NCBI GenBank assembly: GCA_031288395.1
Contig: JAITRM010000007.1
Location: 1 to 43,976 of the forward strand
Reading direction: 5' to 3'
DNA length: 43,976 nucleotides
Source: Holosporaceae bacterium
GTDB lineage: Bacteria; Pseudomonadota; Alphaproteobacteria; UBA3830
The stretch's first letter is position 1. The number at the start of each line of letters is the position of its first letter. Below are positions 1-43,976 of the stretch, one piece after another. The position numbers were made by a program, and so were the translations under genes. The notes beneath the pieces were generated by a model, which was given only the letters and a program-made list of their open reading frames with translations, was not told the origin of the DNA and did no database searches.

Positions 1-1150
1 CCGCTACGACCTCAATAATTTCTTTTTTGTGAACAACGATAGCAAATCCTACAACGCCGCTGCAACGAAGACTGACATTGTACAAAACAAATGCATCGGA
101 AAGCTTGATAACAACGGCACCTGGATATGTTTCTGCGGTGACGGGCAACTTACTCTAAGCGTCAAGCCAACCGGCTCAGTCTCTGGAACAATAGCGTACA
201 AAAACGCATCGAATGCGTCCGCTTCGACTTCGGTAACCAATCTTAGCTACGTGACCATTAACATAAATCCATCGACGCATCTGTACGAACCGCAGGGAGA
301 CGGATCCTATAAAATCACTCTGACGCTAACAAACGTTCAGGTAAGCACCCAAAAAATGTCCGATACTAAAGAAGTAATCCGACACTCGCACCCAGATGTA
401 GTAGCGGATAAGCTGGAAAACGTGCGTATTGTGGACTTTAATACCAATCCGCCAAAACATTATGGGAGTATTCTTTTCGGAGAAGATGAAAGCGGCACGT
501 TGACCGCCCACGGTCATTCCTACAGCCTCATTGACCACCTGAAATACTGGGTAACCAATAGCGGGTGGAACCACTTCTATCATAAAGGCGTCATCGGCGA
601 TTGGTTTGCAATCCTCTTGGATTATGGCAACGTTTTGCCAAGCATTAAGTGGTTTCTTAATGGCGACAGCAATTATAATGCGGCGTACTCCTTTTCGGGA
701 TTACACCGCAGCTTTTTCCCCTGGGGCGCATTTGAGAATCGAGAGGGAATTTTCGCTAGCTTTGATATCACCAATGCTAAATCTACAGCCCTCATTTTCG
801 GCGGATACACGCTGCCGTTAAATTATATGCTCTGCAACAGCGGATACCAAACGCCAGCCACTGCCGCCACGGCCGTTGACCAAGACAATGCGGTGGCCAA
901 GGTTACCGACGACGCGTGCAGCAAATTGAAATCATCCGATAACACCAGAGTCTACGTGATTAAATACAGAATAGCAGATTCAAATTTAGGAAACAGCAGC
1001 AAAGCGGCGCTTGAAAAATGCGCCTACGGCGCTTCGAGTCCATATACCCAGACAGTGTCAACCGAGGCAGATCTGATAGCCGCTCTGCAAGAGATTGCCG
1101 ACGACATAAAAACGTTCGCCGACCGTAAAGATTACCACGTGGACGAGTGA
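1..1150 (+). CDS. TadG-like pilus-associated protein with C-terminal vWA-type region, 5' end outside window
   Basis: The frame is open to the left edge: no stop lies before the first possible start (GTG at 29), so this is the C-terminal part (about 382 codons) of a longer gene. The last 110 residues resemble the end of the von Willebrand A region of TadG-type Tad-pilus proteins. They show a cysteine helix (DDACSKLK), a strand (RVYVIKYRI), a second cysteine (LEKCA), then a helix with the pattern ADLIAALQEIADDI. The MIDAS motif would lie upstream and cannot be checked. The middle part is not recognisable to me. TadG proteins are envelope-anchored helpers of Flp pilus assembly. The Flp-like and TadE-like genes elsewhere in the window support this reading, but they are not adjacent. 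It converges on the ABC ATPase gene with 19 bases between the stops. Confidence 0.55.
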   Translation, partial: RYDLNNFFFVNNDSKSYNAAATKTDIVQNKCIGKLDNNGTWICFCGDGQLTLSVKPTGSVSGTIAYKNASNASASTSVTNLSYVTININPSTHLYEPQGDGSYKITLTLTNVQVSTQKMSDTKEVIRHSHPDVVADKLENVRIVDFNTNPPKHYGSILFGEDESGTLTAHGHSYSLIDHLKYWVTNSGWNHFYHKGVIGDWFAILLDYGNVLPSIKWFLNGDSNYNAAYSFSGLHRSFFPWGAFENREGIFASFDITNAKSTALIFGGYTLPLNYMLCNSGYQTPATAATAVDQDNAVAKVTDDACSKLKSSDNTRVYVIKYRIADSNLGNSSKAALEKCAYGASSPYTQTVSTEADLIAALQEIADDIKTFADRKDYHVDE

Positions 1151-26707: not shown

Positions 26708-27226
26708 TTGGGGTTGGTTAATTCACTGGAAACCGCTAAAGAATCGCTGAGACATGTGTGGCTCATTTCGGCGGATTCTATATTTAAAAGCGAGCTAAAG
26801 GGCTTCGAGAAATACGCAAAAATCTCCGGCATGGAACTTTTCATGTCTAGGATTTCCCTATTTGACGGAGAAAAAACTTCCGATAGCGCCGTTTCGGCTA
26901 AAAATACGAAAATATATATGCTATCCGGCGTGCATTCTGCGATTATTCAGGGTCGCATGGCCAAAAAAGTCGTAATTCCCAAAATTTCCATGAAAAAACT
27001 GGCGTCTCTATCCGGAAGTTTGGAAGTTATTGAAGAAAAAGAGTTTTCAAAATGCATAATTCACTCTTTTAGCCAAATATTTTCGCCAGACAGGGAAGAG
27101 ATTGCGTTTACGTTTAGTTGTTCGTCATTTTCCGATTCCTATACGGAGATCAAAAAAGACGGAGTCAAAGGAGGAAACGCCGCCGTTAAAATTGATTTTG
27201 CCGCCTGGAAAATCGAAGATTCATAA
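26708..27226 (+). CDS. T6SS-linked protein in the hcp position, possible divergent Hcp/TssD
   Basis: The 172-residue protein is soluble, without signal peptide or membrane span. It is rich in beta-type patterns in its second half (KCIIHSFSQIF, then EEIAFTFSCSSFSDSYTEIK). Size and position fit the tube protein Hcp: in common T6SS clusters hcp lies directly before tssE, as here with 14 bases between. The strand pattern near the end resembles the last Hcp strands, but I see no decisive Hcp motif. No ATG exists near the start; TGA precedes the TTG at 26708 directly, so TTG at 26708 or 26714 must be used. It could instead be a T6SS accessory protein. The function is inferred mainly from context. 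Confidence 0.5.
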   Translation: MGLVNSLETAKESLRHVWLISADSIFKSELKGFEKYAKISGMELFMSRISLFDGEKTSDSAVSAKNTKIYMLSGVHSAIIQGRMAKKVVIPKISMKKLASLSGSLEVIEEKEFSKCIIHSFSQIFSPDREEIAFTFSCSSFSDSYTEIKKDGVKGGNAAVKIDFAAWKIEDS

Positions 27227-37945: not shown

Positions 37946-38023
37946 GAAAAATTTCTATCCTTAATGGCGAATCTCTTTCCGTTTTCGCATTTTTTTAACA
38001 TATGTCCAGTATACTATGATATT

Positions 38024-38761
38024 ATGGTTAAATTTTTTAAAGCCTGGAAGCGGTCGCGGCGTAAAATTCTACAAAAAGTAAAGGGAGGAGTTCTTGTGGA
38101 GTTCTCCTTTTCGGTGCCGCTGTTGATAATGGTGATGTTTTTTGCCCTTGATGTTCCGCTCGCCTACAGAATATCATCGAAACTTCAAAAAACGTCTGAA
38201 CTATACGCGCAGATGCTGTTGAATATCATCGAAAAGAAGCCGTCCCGAAAGTTAACGAGCGATGATCTAAAAAATATTTCCAAAGCGGTGGGGCTGACTT
38301 TCACGGGAGTTAATGGCAGCGGGGCAAAGCCAAACAATCAGTATCCGTTTTTCCTATCTACCCACATAACATGCATAAAATGCGATCAAACCACCGGCAC
38401 TTTCGTAATAAAATGGAATATGCACATACAAAATGATTTGAAAACTGGAAATGTAACGTCTACGCCCAACGACTATACCTACTCCATCAATATTTCCAGC
38501 AAGGATATAACTTCGTTCAATGGCAGTCTCAAAAATTTTAGAACGTACCTGGGTGAATTGAAATTATTGATCGAGACCGTCGCTTGGCACGACGGGCTCG
38601 GCCGTGGATTCAATCAAAAATTCTATCTGCTGTCGATTCCCGGGAAGACCAAAAATCAGAACGATAATGTCCAAGACGGAAAAAACAGCAGAATTCTTGG
38701 CGACAGGTATGCGGTCGTGACTCCCAGCGAATCCGTAGATCTAGAATCTTTGCCCATATAG
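38024..38761 (+). CDS. TadE-like pilus assembly protein
   Basis: From the ATG at 38024 the protein has 245 residues. It has a basic leader (KRSRRKILQKVKG), then GVLVEFSFSVPLLIMVMFFALDV. This is the pseudopilin signature of TadE/TadF: cleavage after a glycine, Glu at +5, one hydrophobic helix. The rest is a periplasmic domain with a cysteine pair (CIKC). TadE pseudopilins support Flp pilus assembly. The frame stays open 20 codons further upstream to an ATG at 37964, but those residues do not fit a prepilin leader. Neither start has a clear Shine-Dalgarno. The gene follows SulP and converges on comM. Confidence 0.75.
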   Translation: MVKFFKAWKRSRRKILQKVKGGVLVEFSFSVPLLIMVMFFALDVPLAYRISSKLQKTSELYAQMLLNIIEKKPSRKLTSDDLKNISKAVGLTFTGVNGSGAKPNNQYPFFLSTHITCIKCDQTTGTFVIKWNMHIQNDLKTGNVTSTPNDYTYSINISSKDITSFNGSLKNFRTYLGELKLLIETVAWHDGLGRGFNQKFYLLSIPGKTKNQNDNVQDGKNSRILGDRYAVVTPSESVDLESLPI

Positions 38762-38772
38762 TTACCGCGGGA

Positions 38773-40278
38773 TTACATCATCCTCCGATAGCTTATGGCT
38801 TCGGTGACGTGTCCTTTCTCGATGGCGTCGAATTTGGCGAGATCGGCCAGCGTTCGGGCCAGTTTTATGACTCGATAGTAGCCGCGGGCCGAAATTTTTA
38901 CCAGGTCGATGCACCTGTAGAGGACTTCTTTGGCTTCGTCGGTCAGATAATGCTCCAGTTCGTGGCCATCGACCTCGGAATTCGTGCCTAGCCGGCGACT
39001 TTTATAGCGCTCCAGCTGAATTTCTCTCGCCGCCATGACGCGCGCCCTAATAGCTCCCGATTTTTCTATGCTTTCCTGCGGTTGCGTGAAATCGGAGATT
39101 TTAACGTCCGGCACATCGACGAATATGTCGATTCTATCCAGCAGTGGTCCGGAAATTTTCCTCAGGTAATCCTTTCCGCACTTGGGAGCCAGATTGCACT
39201 CCTTCTCCGGATTGCCCAGATACCCGCAGCGACAAGGATTCATGGCGGCAACCAACTGAATTCTGGCCGGATAGGTCACGTGGCTGTTGGCTCGCGCTAT
39301 GGTGATATTGCCGGTTTCCAGTGGCTGGCGCAGAGATTCCAGAGCCGCTCGGGAAAATTCCGGAAGCTCGTCCAGAAATAGCACTCCGCGGTGCGCCAAA
39401 GAAATTTCCCCGGGCTTGGCGTTCGCGCCGCCGCCCACCAGCGCCACCAGAGAGGCCGAGTGATGCGGCGATCGGTACGGTCTCTCGGTGATAAGCCCCA
39501 CGTCGGACGTCATGCCGGCGAGACTGTGGATCATGGTGACTTCCAGCGCCTCCTCCGGCGTGATCGGCGGCATAATGCTGGGAATCCTCGCCGCCAGAAT
39601 GGATTTCCCCACGCCCGGAGGCCCCAGCATCAGGACGTTGTGATTGCCGGCGGCGGCTATTTCCATCGCTCTTTTGGCCGTCATCTGTCCCTTTATGTCG
39701 CTGAAGCAGCCCACATTCGACGGTTTTATGGTGTGTTCCGAAGCCTTAGCCACGATTCGCGGAAGAATTTGCTCGCCCTTGAAATGATTGATCAAGGAAA
39801 GAAGGCTGGACGGCGCCAATATGTGATTTTCTCCGGCCCAAACGGCTTCCTGCGCCTGTTCTTCCGGACATATCAGAATTTTATTCTGGGATTTGGCCCA
39901 AATGGCCGTCGGCAGAACTCCCGGAACTTTGGCGAGGGAACCGTTGAGGGCGAGCTCTCCGACAGCCACCACGCTGTCCACATCCTCCTGCTGAATAACG
40001 CCCATGGCGGTCAGAAGCGCCAGAGCGATGGGCAGATCGTAGTGGCTCCCCTCCTTTTGCACGTCCGCCGGCGCGAGGTTCACCGTGATTCTCTTCGACG
40101 GCAGAGCGATTCCCATGGAATAGAGGCAGGCGCGGATTCTTTCCCGCGATTCCGCCACAGTTTTATCCGGCAAACCCACAATGGTAAAAGCCGGCAACCC
40201 GTTCAGCATCTGGATCTGCACGTCGATTTCTATGGTGTTAATTCCCAGAAACGAAACCGTCTTTATGTTGGCATTCAC
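38773..40278 (-). CDS. comM: YifB/ComM family AAA+ ATPase (Mg-chelatase-like)
   Basis: ComM is a hexameric helicase that promotes branch migration when incoming DNA is integrated during natural transformation; the family is also widespread in species not known to be competent. The 501-residue protein has an N-terminal ChlI-like domain (HYDLPIALALL), Walker A GPPGVGKS (219-226), and the segment RPYRSPHHSASLVALVGGG. Walker B lies in LFLDELPEF. A four-cysteine segment (NPCRCGYLGN to APKCGKDY) and a C-terminal helical domain (LARTLADLA) follow. Its ATG overlaps the stop of the BON gene, so the two are coupled. Confidence 0.94.
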   Translation of the reverse strand: MNANIKTVSFLGINTIEIDVQIQMLNGLPAFTIVGLPDKTVAESRERIRACLYSMGIALPSKRITVNLAPADVQKEGSHYDLPIALALLTAMGVIQQEDVDSVVAVGELALNGSLAKVPGVLPTAIWAKSQNKILICPEEQAQEAVWAGENHILAPSSLLSLINHFKGEQILPRIVAKASEHTIKPSNVGCFSDIKGQMTAKRAMEIAAAGNHNVLMLGPPGVGKSILAARIPSIMPPITPEEALEVTMIHSLAGMTSDVGLITERPYRSPHHSASLVALVGGGANAKPGEISLAHRGVLFLDELPEFSRAALESLRQPLETGNITIARANSHVTYPARIQLVAAMNPCRCGYLGNPEKECNLAPKCGKDYLRKISGPLLDRIDIFVDVPDVKISDFTQPQESIEKSGAIRARVMAAREIQLERYKSRRLGTNSEVDGHELEHYLTDEAKEVLYRCIDLVKISARGYYRVIKLARTLADLAKFDAIEKGHVTEAISYRRMM

Positions 40279-40898
40279 CGTTGGACGCCGTCCTTTTCCC
40301 CATCTGTTTCTGCGTTTTCTTTCCTGTTTATCTTGATGTAGGACACCACCTTTTCCACTCCGGAGGTGGTTCGCGCGTGATTAAGCGCCACGTCGCGCTC
40401 GAAGAGCGTCTGGGCGGTTCCGCACACGTAAACAACGCCTCGCACGGTGGTAATGTCATAATTCATGGAGTGGACGTTGCCGTCGAACGAGAAGGCGGAC
40501 TTAATGCGGGAAGTTATGCCGGTATCGATGGCAAAATCGGACACGTTCGGCATATCCTGCACCCTAGTTTCGTCATAGGCGTTCCCGCAGCCCTCGATGT
40601 TCCTTATTATCTGCATCGCCTTCTCTCGCTGAGCGTCGTCTTTCATATATCCTATTACGACGACGATGCCATGCTTGATCGCCAGCTCGACCCTGTCGAA
40701 AATATCCTTATCGCTGACGAATAGAGCGTTGTTTATTTTTGCTTGCAGCTCAGTATCGGAAATACTGCCGGAAACCCCCTCCTGATTGCGGACGGCGGTG
40801 CTTCCCACGACGGCGGTTCCCCCCAAAATCCAGGTGAAAGGGTCGCAGGAGGCGCATAGCAGCGCCGGAAATAGTATCCACAGCTTGGCTAAATTCAT
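40275..40898 (-). CDS. BON-domain lipoprotein (OsmY/DolP-like)
   Basis: From the ATG at 40898 the protein has 207 residues. It starts with a lipoprotein signal peptide ending in the lipobox LLCASC, so it should be lipidated at Cys18. Two BON domains follow, with the motifs INNALFVSDKDIFDRVELAIKHG and later GITSRIKSAFSFDGNVHSMN, the second ending in GVVYVCGTAQT. A charged tail ends the protein. DolP (YraP), the E. coli dual-BON outer-membrane lipoprotein, has the same layout and supports envelope integrity. CGGAG precedes the ATG; 14 more in-frame codons upstream are unlikely. Co-transcription with comM is probable. Confidence 0.87.
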   Translation of the reverse strand: MNLAKLWILFPALLCASCDPFTWILGGTAVVGSTAVRNQEGVSGSISDTELQAKINNALFVSDKDIFDRVELAIKHGIVVVIGYMKDDAQREKAMQIIRNIEGCGNAYDETRVQDMPNVSDFAIDTGITSRIKSAFSFDGNVHSMNYDITTVRGVVYVCGTAQTLFERDVALNHARTTSGVEKVVSYIKINRKENAETDGEKDGVQR

Positions 40899-40931
40899 CT
40901 TTACTCCGAGAATGCAAAAATAACGGACGAA

Positions 40932-40946
40932 TTGTAGCATTTTTGC
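40932..40946. repeat. Second copy of the 15-base TTGTAGCATTTTTGC sequence
   Basis: This is the same 15 bases as at 35636-35650, starting about 35 bases upstream of the BON lipoprotein ATG. On the minus strand it reads GCAAAAATGCTACAA and continues as TACAAT, which matches a -10 box at 5 of 6 positions. It may be a promoter element shared by the two loci. Confidence 0.5.
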
Positions 40947-41257
40947 CCACCCAGCGCCAGCCGATGGATTCTGCGGCCCTAGGTTCTGGTGATGACGCTA
41001 GATTTGCGTAGTTTTTGAGGCGACGAGGATTCCTGAGCAACTCCAAACAGACCCGAAACTGATCCGTTTTTCCCCACGACGATCGTTAAGCGTAGACGCG
41101 TCAGGCAACCTGTCGCTTTTTATTCAGGGCAAAAGCGAGAGGGAGGGTTAGCTCCCGTCCCAAGGGCTTGAAGCCCACCCCCGTTCTCGTTATCAAGACC
41201 TTTCTGGTTCAAGCTGACTTCAGGTTGAACTGGTCTAAAAAGACTGCTCTATTTGCC
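40947..41257. other. Intergenic stretch with clustered inverted repeats, no gene seen
   Basis: No credible reading frame is present. The part from 41113 to 41236 holds four inverted repeats: TCGCTTTT/AAAAGCGA (41113-41120 with 41131-41138), GGGAG/CTCCC (41141-41145 with 41152-41156), GGGCTT/AAGCCC (41164-41176), and a long imperfect one. The long one pairs AGACC/GGTCT (41196-41200 with 41232-41236) and GTTCAA/TTGAAC (41207-41212 with 41225-41230). An outer pair CGAGA/TCTCG (41136-41140 with 41185-41189) could enclose the middle ones. This could be a structured RNA, a set of transcript ends or a repeat element. I see no signature of tmRNA, RNase P RNA or SRP RNA. Confidence 0.45.
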
Positions 41258-42964
41258 TTATTTGATGGGCTTCTTTCTCTTTAGGCCCACGCTCGGCAAA
41301 CTTTTTACAAACAGGCCATCACCACTTTCTAGGAGTTTCAGCTCGTTGCTCGGCAATGCATTCAAACCGAATCCAGTTCCGTGAGTTTGCATGAAATTGA
41401 TTAGCTGGCTTACCTCGAACGGTTTTTCTTTCCCGGACTCCCCAAGGCGTTGCAGTATGCTTGTAACGGTGGAATCGAAACCTTTTCCCTGGGTGGCAAG
41501 CATGTTAGCGCCAGCCCGAGCCCTGAACAGCAGTTCGTCGAACGCAATATTGGCCAGCCCACTTGGTAACTTTGCCAACCCCACCAGCGTTTGCTGTATG
41601 GGCTGCAGCATTCCCGCCACCTTTTCGTCTGTCGCTTCGGTGTTCATGCAGTATCTTAGCGCCGCGAACAACTTGTCAACCGTCCCTGGCGTCACGTACA
41701 GGGCACTACCTTTGGTGCTGAACGATGTTCCCAGGAGTGTGCTAATCGACCCCACCACGGATTGGCAGTGAGTGACCACGTCGAGCAGAGGGCCTGATCC
41801 TATCATGTTAATTGCGTCATTTATTTTCCCTTTCTCTACCAGCGGTTTGATGTATATTTCCCACCTATCTAGCTCATATCCGTATATCGCTTTGATCAGA
41901 CCTGACCCGTACATTGACAGCGCCATCCTTCCACTGTCTCCTTTTCCCAGTCTCGCGAGTCCGAATATCGCTTTATTCCACAACGAGCTACCTCTGGTGA
42001 AGCCAGCATCCAGGAGCAGTCGCTCGTTTCCGTCCTTTACGACACTTTCATTTCTTGTTTCCTTAACCACGATAGATTCTTGGTTTTTCATGAAGAGCTG
42101 GAGTAGTTCTTTGCTTTCTTGGTAGTCTTGCTCCTGCGTACGCTTCTTTAGCTCAAATGGCGCTTTGATTACTACCTTTTTCTCATCGTAGGCCGGTTCT
42201 ACCAACCAATCTTCGTCCAATTTAATCAATGCGACTGCTTCCGTAGGCTCCACTCCCGATTCACTCACGTTGGCGATGAGTTTAGCTGCGGTTATCTCAT
42301 TCTTTGCGATATCCCGCGAATACAAGAAAGCTGCGCGTATGAGGCTCATAGCCTTTCCCGGGTCTCTTGCTTGGAACATTATCCCGATCATCGACAATAT
42401 GTATTCGGACATACCCTTTTGGTAGCTCGGAGGTAAAGTTTTGTACCTGTCGTTCATAGACAGCAGCGTTTTTGCCGCCGCGCTCGCTTCTTCATTACCG
42501 TCTTCTTTTTTTTTCAGAGCTCCTATCAAGCTTGCGTACGCGACTATTAACTCTTTAGTCATTTGATTCAAGCTCTGTACTGTCATGGTCACAAACCCCG
42601 CGAGTCGCAGCATAGATTCTGTTATGCAGTTCTCGGCGTTCATAATGTTGGCCGAGAGGAGATTCTGTTTCAGATACTCCATCTCTTCTTTTACGCCTGG
42701 CGTGTCCGCTAACAGTTTCTGGTATGTCGCTATCGCTGCCCCCGATCCAGAGAAACCCTCAGTAGCAGCGACGTCCGGCAGGGGTACGAACCCGGCCAGT
42801 AGGCTATTATGATCCACTTTCACTACCTGCGTCTGCGGTTCTGTGGAGCCCACAACCCCATCGTCCTTTCCGTATTCCAGCCGCAGCATCGCTTCCGCTT
42901 CGTTCCATTGGGGCAGTAGCGTCGCTATTAGCCCCAGTGTTCCAAGATATTTAAATTTACTCAT
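41258..42964 (-). CDS. Predicted secreted protein of unknown family, 568 residues
   Basis: The ATG at 42964 is preceded by AGGAGG with a 7-base spacer, so expression is likely. The N-terminus is a signal peptide: a basic start (SKFK), a hydrophobic core (YLGTLGLIATLL) and a probable cleavage after AEA near residue 25. The remainder looks largely helical, without further membrane spans. It has long amphipathic stretches, two cysteines in the C-terminal half, and a very basic end (LKRKKPIK). I recognise no family, repeat or catalytic motif. It has no functional partner nearby except the next unknown gene upstream. An exported, lineage-specific protein of a host-associated bacterium is a reasonable guess, no more. 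Confidence 0.72.
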   Translation of the reverse strand: MSKFKYLGTLGLIATLLPQWNEAEAMLRLEYGKDDGVVGSTEPQTQVVKVDHNSLLAGFVPLPDVAATEGFSGSGAAIATYQKLLADTPGVKEEMEYLKQNLLSANIMNAENCITESMLRLAGFVTMTVQSLNQMTKELIVAYASLIGALKKKEDGNEEASAAAKTLLSMNDRYKTLPPSYQKGMSEYILSMIGIMFQARDPGKAMSLIRAAFLYSRDIAKNEITAAKLIANVSESGVEPTEAVALIKLDEDWLVEPAYDEKKVVIKAPFELKKRTQEQDYQESKELLQLFMKNQESIVVKETRNESVVKDGNERLLLDAGFTRGSSLWNKAIFGLARLGKGDSGRMALSMYGSGLIKAIYGYELDRWEIYIKPLVEKGKINDAINMIGSGPLLDVVTHCQSVVGSISTLLGTSFSTKGSALYVTPGTVDKLFAALRYCMNTEATDEKVAGMLQPIQQTLVGLAKLPSGLANIAFDELLFRARAGANMLATQGKGFDSTVTSILQRLGESGKEKPFEVSQLINFMQTHGTGFGLNALPSNELKLLESGDGLFVKSLPSVGLKRKKPIK

Positions 42965-43110
42965 TTTCTAACCTCCTATTATGTTAAGTAAATAATAAAC
43001 AATTCCCTCTTCTTCTCTACTTTTACCACCTTTTTTTCCACTTTACTACGTCTCCACTCTCGCCCACCGCGCTTCCGCGCCTCCAGTGGACTTCTCCCAG
43101 TCATCGGTTG

Positions 43111-43976
43111 TCACGCATCATCATCATCATCATCAATTGTTAGTGCATTCTTCAACTCAGCCACGCTCGTCACTTTGCTCAACTTTTCGCACAAAATCAC
43201 TTTATTTTGCCCGCAGAACTGCGTATCGTCTCTAACACTGTCAACCAGCGAGCATCTCTTGTCTTGATGATCACCTGATCGGAACGTTTCATCGGATCCC
43301 GGAATTATATTCCCCCCTTGTTTGAAGTAGTCATAATTTCGTAGCGCTCTGCTGGCTAGACGCAGCAGTGCAAACCCATCGACAATCTCCTGCCACTCTC
43401 CGTCTCCCGGATCTGCAAGATTCCCATCTGCCTCTCTTTCCACCAGGAACACCAGGTTGTTTCGGATCCTACTCACTAGCACGTTTATCGTCTCGCTCTG
43501 AGTATCGGCATTTTTCGTTGTATCTCCTCCTACGCTGTCGCCCAGGGTGGACAGCAGTTGTCCAGCGTCTTTCAGCGATTTCGCCATATCGTTACCATCA
43601 GCTGCTGGCGCGTCTCTTCTGTTCTCGGCCACGACCTTGTCTGCAAGGCGCCGCACTGGGTCACTGTAAAGTTGGACGACCACTGCCGCGTCCGCGTCGA
43701 CCGGCACGACCGGCACGACCGGCGCTTCCGGGGCCAGCGCTTCGCCGCCATCACGCACTTCCCCAAATGCCGTTATCGCCTCATCTAGCAACTTTTTTTT
43801 GCCCCTGGCAGCGTTCATAGCGGCAGTATATGCTGCATCGAGATTATTCAAATCGGTGTAGAGATCTGCAGTAGGAGCATCCACTACACCGGCCGCAACC
43901 GCAGCGGCTAGTTGCTTTGCAAGCCCTTCACCTTCCTCCCTCACATTGTATGTGACCGAGGTCGCCACTAAATCTC
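43111..43976 (-). CDS. Hypothetical acidic protein, 5' end outside window
   Basis: The frame stays open to the right edge: no stop lies before the first candidate start (GTG at 43968), so the N-terminus may lie outside. About 287 residues are visible. The first part is rich in alanine and helical. A short Pro/Val segment (APVVPVVPVDADAA) is encoded by a 9-base tandem repeat, and the DNA there is unusually GC-rich. The second half has charged helices and four cysteines in two pairs (RCSLVD and QFCGQ; ILCEKL is a third site). It ends in six aspartates plus alanine. I recognise no family. The gap to the 568-residue gene is 146 bases and purine-rich on the coding strand. Confidence 0.6.
   Translation of the reverse strand, partial: DLVATSVTYNVREEGEGLAKQLAAAVAAGVVDAPTADLYTDLNNLDAAYTAAMNAARGKKKLLDEAITAFGEVRDGGEALAPEAPVVPVVPVDADAAVVVQLYSDPVRRLADKVVAENRRDAPAADGNDMAKSLKDAGQLLSTLGDSVGGDTTKNADTQSETINVLVSRIRNNLVFLVEREADGNLADPGDGEWQEIVDGFALLRLASRALRNYDYFKQGGNIIPGSDETFRSGDHQDKRCSLVDSVRDDTQFCGQNKVILCEKLSKVTSVAELKNALTIDDDDDDA
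43116..43133. repeat. Trinucleotide repeat (CAT)6 encoding a C-terminal Asp run
   Basis: Six uninterrupted CAT units on the plus strand correspond to GAT codons on the coding strand, giving six aspartates immediately before the last residue. Slippage here would change the Asp count without shifting the frame. Confidence 0.9.
43698..43724. repeat. 9-base tandem repeat, three copies
   Basis: CGACCGGCA repeats three times, the last copy ending in G instead of A. It lies in the GC-rich part of the partial gene and encodes the valine/proline segment. Its 9-base length keeps the reading frame if the copy number changes. Confidence 0.85.

What the first reader, a model, noticed from the sequence alone, without database searches (positions are those of the whole stretch)
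41258..42964. Large predicted secreted protein with no recognisable family
It has a clear signal peptide and an ideal Shine-Dalgarno, is 568 residues long, mostly helical, with no known motif. In a genome with injection machinery and pilus genes, exported orphan proteins are candidates for host interaction. Its neighbour is another orphan.
Basis: partly seen in the sequence, partly recalled or inferred. Interest (0 to 1): 0.55.

Follow-up and report, generated by a model that had tools for sequence, protein, structure and literature searches.

The report
Fast-diverging exported orphan protein pair
A small symbiont-type bacterium carries a large exported protein of unknown family, next to a second unknown protein, and the only relative found shows the pair has changed far more than the genes around it, so it is a reasonable but untested candidate for acting on a host.

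Summary
The gene is real: minus strand, window 41258-42964, 568 aa, with an AGGAGG ribosome-binding site and a Sec-type signal peptide. No Pfam, NCBIfam, PHROGs, PADLOC or PDB match is meaningful. The genome (G000; 787 kb, 37 contigs) has one relative with the gene, G001, a congeneric "Holosporaceae bacterium" (575 aa, 30% identical, signal peptide kept). G000 and G001 are the only true carriers among 49 genomes of the order. A sample of 385 genomes of the class gave only self plus five weak hits. In both genomes the gene follows a second orphan; the two neighbours are themselves diverged homologues, so this is a conserved two-gene unit. The window's neighbour is cut off by the contig end. Of 21 other genes with a match in the G001 stretches held, 20 are 69-92% identical, exported ones included; this gene is about 30%. 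The unit lies at different places in the two genomes. Structure prediction failed (pLDDT 34 and 48). My reading: a Sec-exported, helical, fast-evolving accessory protein, possibly a host-interaction factor, leaving the cell, if at all, by a secretin route rather than the type VI apparatus. A new member of a known kind (lineage-restricted exported orphans). Interest moderate-low.

The parts
41258..42964 (-). orphan exported protein, 568 aa, 61.9 kDa precursor (P0001)
   Evidence: ORF; full-length homologue in G001; mass
42890..42964 (-). predicted Sec signal peptide, residues 1-25 (cleavage after AEA)
   Evidence: sequence read directly; conserved N-terminus in G001; cleavage rule recalled, no predictor run
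42972..42977 (-). Shine-Dalgarno AGGAGG, 7 bases before the ATG
43111..43968 (-). upstream orphan partner, at least 285 aa, 5' end cut by the contig end, acidic (charge -20)
   Evidence: diverged homologue in the same place and orientation in G001
40275..40940 (-). BON-domain lipoprotein-like protein; conserved flank, not part of the unit
   Evidence: Pfam BON; found in 5 of 5 genus genomes searched; DNA similarity to G001 stops 23 bases upstream of it

Best explanation
The gene encodes a Sec-exported, soluble, mainly helical protein that belongs, together with the orphan encoded just upstream, to a lineage-restricted accessory unit of a Holosporaceae-related symbiont. Shown: the ORF, the conserved signal-like N-terminus, the paired homologues in a second genome, the outlying divergence and the different genomic position. 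Inferred: SecA/SecYEG export and cleavage after residue 25; a mature protein of about 59 kDa in the periplasm; possible passage across the outer membrane through the secretin of the MshL/GspD-like system, or by release of periplasmic content as in Holospora; and an action on the protist or animal host, the rapid divergence being due to host-specific adaptation. I put export at about 0.9 and host interaction at about 0.4.
For: Full-length homologue with the same start, signal peptide and length. Pair conserved: neighbours score 68 against a shuffle maximum of 49 in 500 (Z 8.4), BLASTP E 0.007 for the single comparison. Occurrence 2 of 49 genomes of the order, self included (three weak hits rejected). 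Divergence: about 30% against 69-92% for 20 of 21 other genes matched between G000 and G001, among them exported ones: BON 91%, TolB 86%, two secretins 90% and 86%, LolA 69%. Relocation: the DNA match of the BON/yifB block ends 23 bases before BON in G001 while the unit sits on another contig. Secretins in all 5 genus genomes searched. GC content is not foreign. Analogue from print: the Holospora obtusa 63-kDa periplasmic protein, a novel sequence secreted into the host nucleus (PMC9866348, abstract and passages).
Against: No experimental or predicted function. No structure (pLDDT 33.7 and 48.0). Fast divergence also fits relaxed constraint, or paralogues or xenologues rather than orthologues. 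Only two sequences are known. Other unrelated exported orphans were seen in the same genus, so being exported and orphan is not special here. The type II-like route is assigned by similarity only; in G000 itself only the secretins were tested, GspE- and GspF-like genes being read from G004.
Confidence: 0.4

Rival explanations
1. A periplasmic or envelope protein that serves the bacterium itself, for example as a helical scaffold or an adaptor of the cell envelope, and that drifts fast because constraint is relaxed in a small-population symbiont.
For: Signal peptide without other membrane segments; other unrelated exported orphans in the genus; no evidence of passage through the outer membrane.
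Against: Exported household proteins of the same genomes stay 69-91% identical; no match in 3 of 5 genus genomes, although those are only 59-82% complete.
Confidence: 0.35
2. A cargo-and-partner unit, such as an exported toxin or bacteriocin-like protein with its partner or immunity protein upstream.
For: Conserved two-gene order, fast divergence of both members, different genomic position.
Against: No toxin, immunity or PADLOC match; no catalytic motif recognised; the two genes are 107-146 bases apart (coordinates), looser than most such pairs (recalled). The neighbour's 5' end is missing in the window, so whether it is exported is not known.
Confidence: 0.12
3. A substrate of the type VI secretion apparatus encoded in the window.
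For: tssA, tssM, tssE-like, tssF and tssG genes are in the window; a review names type VI as the most credible host-interaction system of the group (PMC11909080, passages).
Against: The Sec signal peptide would send it to the periplasm before it could be loaded in the cytoplasm; it is not next to type VI genes in either genome.
Confidence: 0.05
4. A phage- or plasmid-derived gene.
For: Patchy occurrence and relocation.
Against: No match in phages or plasmids by tblastn at E 1e-5, none in viral contigs by peptide patterns, none in PHROGs below E 0.1; no foreign GC.
Confidence: 0.05

Closest known systems
G001 homologue, record JAISOD010000060.1, Holosporaceae bacterium isolate Iy174_bin27 (L011:9995-11722)
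   Same: Full-length homologue, signal peptide, same upstream partner, same length class
   Different: Only 30% identical; other genomic flanks; acidic stretch near the C-terminus (DDDEDDD) against a basic end
63-kDa periplasmic protein PRP1 of Holospora obtusa (PMC9866348)
   Same: Similar mass, novel sequence in a Holosporales symbiont, exported; works-like candidate only
   Different: PRP1 is reported with a D5_N Pfam domain and a putative signal peptide near its C-terminus; neither is found here. No sequence of PRP1 was compared.
Type VI secretion effectors
   Same: The genome carries type VI genes
   Different: Sec signal peptide, not linked to the type VI genes, no effector family match

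Membership tests
Holospora 63-kDa periplasmic protein (PRP1) | D5_N domain (Pfam) | tested here: not met
   Pfam scans of the two homologues, up to E 10 and E 1, list no D5_N; PRP1's D5_N from PMC9866348
Holospora 63-kDa periplasmic protein (PRP1) | Sequence similarity to PRP1 | not tested
Holospora 63-kDa periplasmic protein (PRP1) | Release from the periplasm into the host | not testable with these tools
   needs localisation in an infected host
Sec-dependent exported protein | N-terminal signal peptide with basic n-region, hydrophobic core and small residues at -3/-1 | tested here: met
   N-terminus, kept in G001; judged by recalled rules, no predictor
Type VI secretion effector | Cytoplasmic loading (no Sec signal) and linkage to type VI genes | tested here: not met
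   signal peptide; neighbours are BON/yifB in the window and 220-aa protein/MFS in G001
Household periplasmic protein family | Match to a curated family model | tested here: not met
   best Pfam E 0.091 (H2TH, 13.2 bits against cut-off 34.7); best NCBIfam E 0.0055, 16.3 bits against cut-off 226
Type II-like secretion substrate | Secretin-based apparatus in the genome and substrate exported by Sec | tested here: inconclusive
   two secretins in G000, one nearest MshL but below its cut-off; whether the system secretes proteins or only makes pili is not known

The most novel reading that the evidence does not exclude
The unit is a two-component, host-directed secreted module of a Holosporaceae-related lineage: two proteins made together, exported by Sec and released through a secretin, evolving several times faster than the rest of the genome and moving between loci; that is, a Sec-plus-secretin effector route in a group for which a review names type VI as the main candidate.
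Probability: 0.15. Interest if true: 0.6.

Novelty: new member of a known kind. Interest (0 to 1): 0.3.

Why it matters
[quoted passage not shown] A conserved, fast-diverging exported pair gives two concrete antigens to localise in infected hosts and points to the secretin systems of these genomes as an exit worth testing. If it is only a drifting envelope protein, it is ordinary.

Tried and rejected
Weak profile hits in G016, G007 and G013 (E 0.007-0.028), open frames of 826-843 aa, are histidine-kinase-like proteins whose similarity rests on a short YIPLPDG-type stretch ('histidine kinase' is my reading of the sequence): chance. The five hits outside the own genome in the class sample (E 0.009-0.029, bits under 15) are of the same strength; only the one in G007 was opened.

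AlphaFold2 on the whole protein with two rows gave pLDDT 33.7, and on the most conserved part (residues 66-250) 48.0. I ran no fold search on models this poor.

Paralogues: none in the own genome at E up to 10 with the protein, none with the two-row profile at E up to 0.1. Four other exported-looking proteins of the genus were compared with the two members of the unit from each genome (8 proteins, 28 comparisons, first 22 residues dropped): apart from the two homologous pairs the highest Z was 2.6, so no wider family was seen. The 431-aa and 344-aa orphans named under 'noticed' were not in that comparison.

Contig joining: no exact overlap between the ends of C4, C5 and C15, so whether C4 and C5 are neighbours was not settled.

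Origin of G001: 'Iy174' is in no held paper; a termite-gut origin is my recollection only, and PMC9137090 (passages) did not confirm it.

Promoter and terminator scans of 40900-43976 were at chance level (2 against 2.3 expected, 3 against 2.3).

Full report
WHAT IS THERE. The finding's ORF exists at the stated coordinates, on the minus strand: 568 codons from ATG at 42964 to the stop at 41258. The plus strand in the same interval has 17 stops. AGGAGG stands 7 bases before the ATG. The first 25 residues fit a Sec signal peptide with cleavage after AEA; this is judged by recalled rules, since no predictor was at hand. No stretch of 19 residues reaches a mean hydropathy of 1.6, so the mature protein should be soluble. 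The precursor is 61.9 kDa.

WHERE IT LIES. The window is a whole contig, C4 of a genome of 786,973 bases in 37 contigs, 95.2% complete. The upstream ORF at 43111-43968 (minus) stays open to the contig end, so only its last 285 residues are counted. Downstream come a BON-domain protein and a yifB-type (Mg-chelatase) gene on the same strand. Type VI genes (ImpA_N, IcmF, GPW_gp25, TssF, TssG) lie 11-26 kb away in the window. The 265-aa protein at 37964-38761 is only weakly TadF/TadE-like, under both cut-offs.

RELATIVES. Search of 61 genomes (self and relatives) with the protein found one real homologue, in G001 of the same genus (E 4.6e-25), and two hits at E 0.11 and 0.16. A two-row profile over the 49 genomes held for the order found G000 and G001, plus three weak hits that turned out to be kinase-like proteins. 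A sample of 385 genomes of the class gave the own genome and five weak hits, bits under 15. The first scan of that collection, with the single protein, found none. No match in plasmids, phages or viral contigs. The three other genus genomes without a match are only 59-82% complete, so absence there is not firm.

A TWO-GENE UNIT. In G001 the homologue (575 aa, 30% identical over the alignment) is preceded, same strand, by a 181-aa ORF (L011:9342-9887). It aligns with the C-terminal third of the window's upstream orphan: score 68 against a maximum of 49 in 500 shuffles, Z 8.4; BLASTP E 0.007 for the single comparison. A plain search with the window's neighbour had not found it in G001, so this homology is distant. 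Gene order and orientation are the same; the spacers are 146 and 107 bases (coordinates). In G001 the large gene is followed directly by a GC-rich inverted repeat and a T run (read by eye from the sequence printed), which suggests that the unit ends there. Co-transcription was not tested.

DIVERGENCE. I compared 33 proteins of G000 with the G001 stretches held. Twenty-two matched and eleven did not; the misses mean little because only stretches were searched, and the window's upstream orphan is among them. Leaving out the protein itself, 20 of 21 matches are 69-92% identical and one TadE-like protein is 41%, probably a paralogue. The median of the 21 is 84%. Exported or envelope proteins are no exception: BON 91% (195 residues), TolB 86%, secretins 90% and 86%, TolA-like 71%, LolA 69%. 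The protein in question has 31% in its best segment. It is thus a clear outlier, either by fast evolution or because the two copies are not orthologues.

POSITION. DNA of the window's last 20 kb matches G001 at 76-84% over the longer blocks; the BON/yifB block ends at window 40963, 23 bases before the BON start, and the preceding 375 bases of that G001 contig show no match to the window. The unit in G001 lies elsewhere, between a 220-aa protein and an MFS-like transporter. The 220-aa protein is widespread (38 of 49 genomes of the order) and in G000 lies on another contig without the unit beside it. The unit has therefore moved, or was gained independently. Its GC content is not unusual for the window.

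FAMILIES AND FOLD. Nothing meaningful in Pfam (best E 0.091; for the homologue 0.038), NCBIfam (best E 0.0055 at 16.3 bits against a cut-off of 226), PHROGs (none for the window protein; 0.11 for the homologue), PADLOC (none) or the PDB sequences (best E 1). The partner has no meaningful match either (Pfam best E 0.13 and, for the G001 copy, 0.015 under the cut-off; PDB best E 0.37). AlphaFold2 predicted mainly helices but with pLDDT 33.7 (whole) and 48.0 (residues 66-250).

HOW IT MAY WORK. Export by Sec is well supported. Beyond the periplasm all is inference. Each of the five genus genomes searched has at least one secretin over the Pfam cut-off, and G000 has two; the one in L036 is nearest MshL, with GspD next, and G004 carries GspE- and GspF-like genes. 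A Sec-plus-secretin route is thus conceivable; a pilus-only role of that system is equally so. Direct type VI loading is unlikely for a protein with a signal peptide. [quoted passage not shown] That is a likeness in behaviour, not in family: its D5_N domain was not found here and no sequence comparison was possible. A comparative study of Holospora likewise focused on lineage-specific proteins with signal peptides or membrane helices as adaptation candidates (PMC5911502, passages).

VERDICT. Such exported orphans are to be expected in host-associated bacteria, and several unrelated ones turned up in the few stretches read.

Noticed in passing
L011:8652-9314 (+); G000 copy L081:980-1621 (+): A 213-220 aa exported-looking protein without any Pfam match, found in 38 of 49 genomes of the order. 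By eye it resembles a TssJ-type type VI component, which a review says seems to be missing in these bacteria; recalled likeness only, not tested.
   Followed up: partly
L036:14049-15344 (-): A 431-aa protein with a signal peptide, a long Ser/Pro-rich repeat region and about nine tandem KKTANL repeats, then Cys-containing motifs; no Pfam or NCBIfam match. It lies beside the zinc-ribbon/ftsK block at the end of contig C5.
   Followed up: partly
L037:252-929 (-); L042:3899-4528 (+); L042:5437-6252 (+); L082:5053-6087 (-): Further exported-looking orphans of about 209-344 aa in G000 and G004. The first three were compared with the unit's proteins and are not related beyond chance; the fourth was only seen.
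   Followed up: partly
window 29-1150 (+): A 373-aa protein with no Pfam match at E up to 0.1, at the start of the contig.
   Followed up: no
window 26708-27226 (+): A 172-aa protein without Pfam match directly before the tssE-like gene, 77% identical in G001; perhaps an unrecognised type VI component.
   Followed up: no
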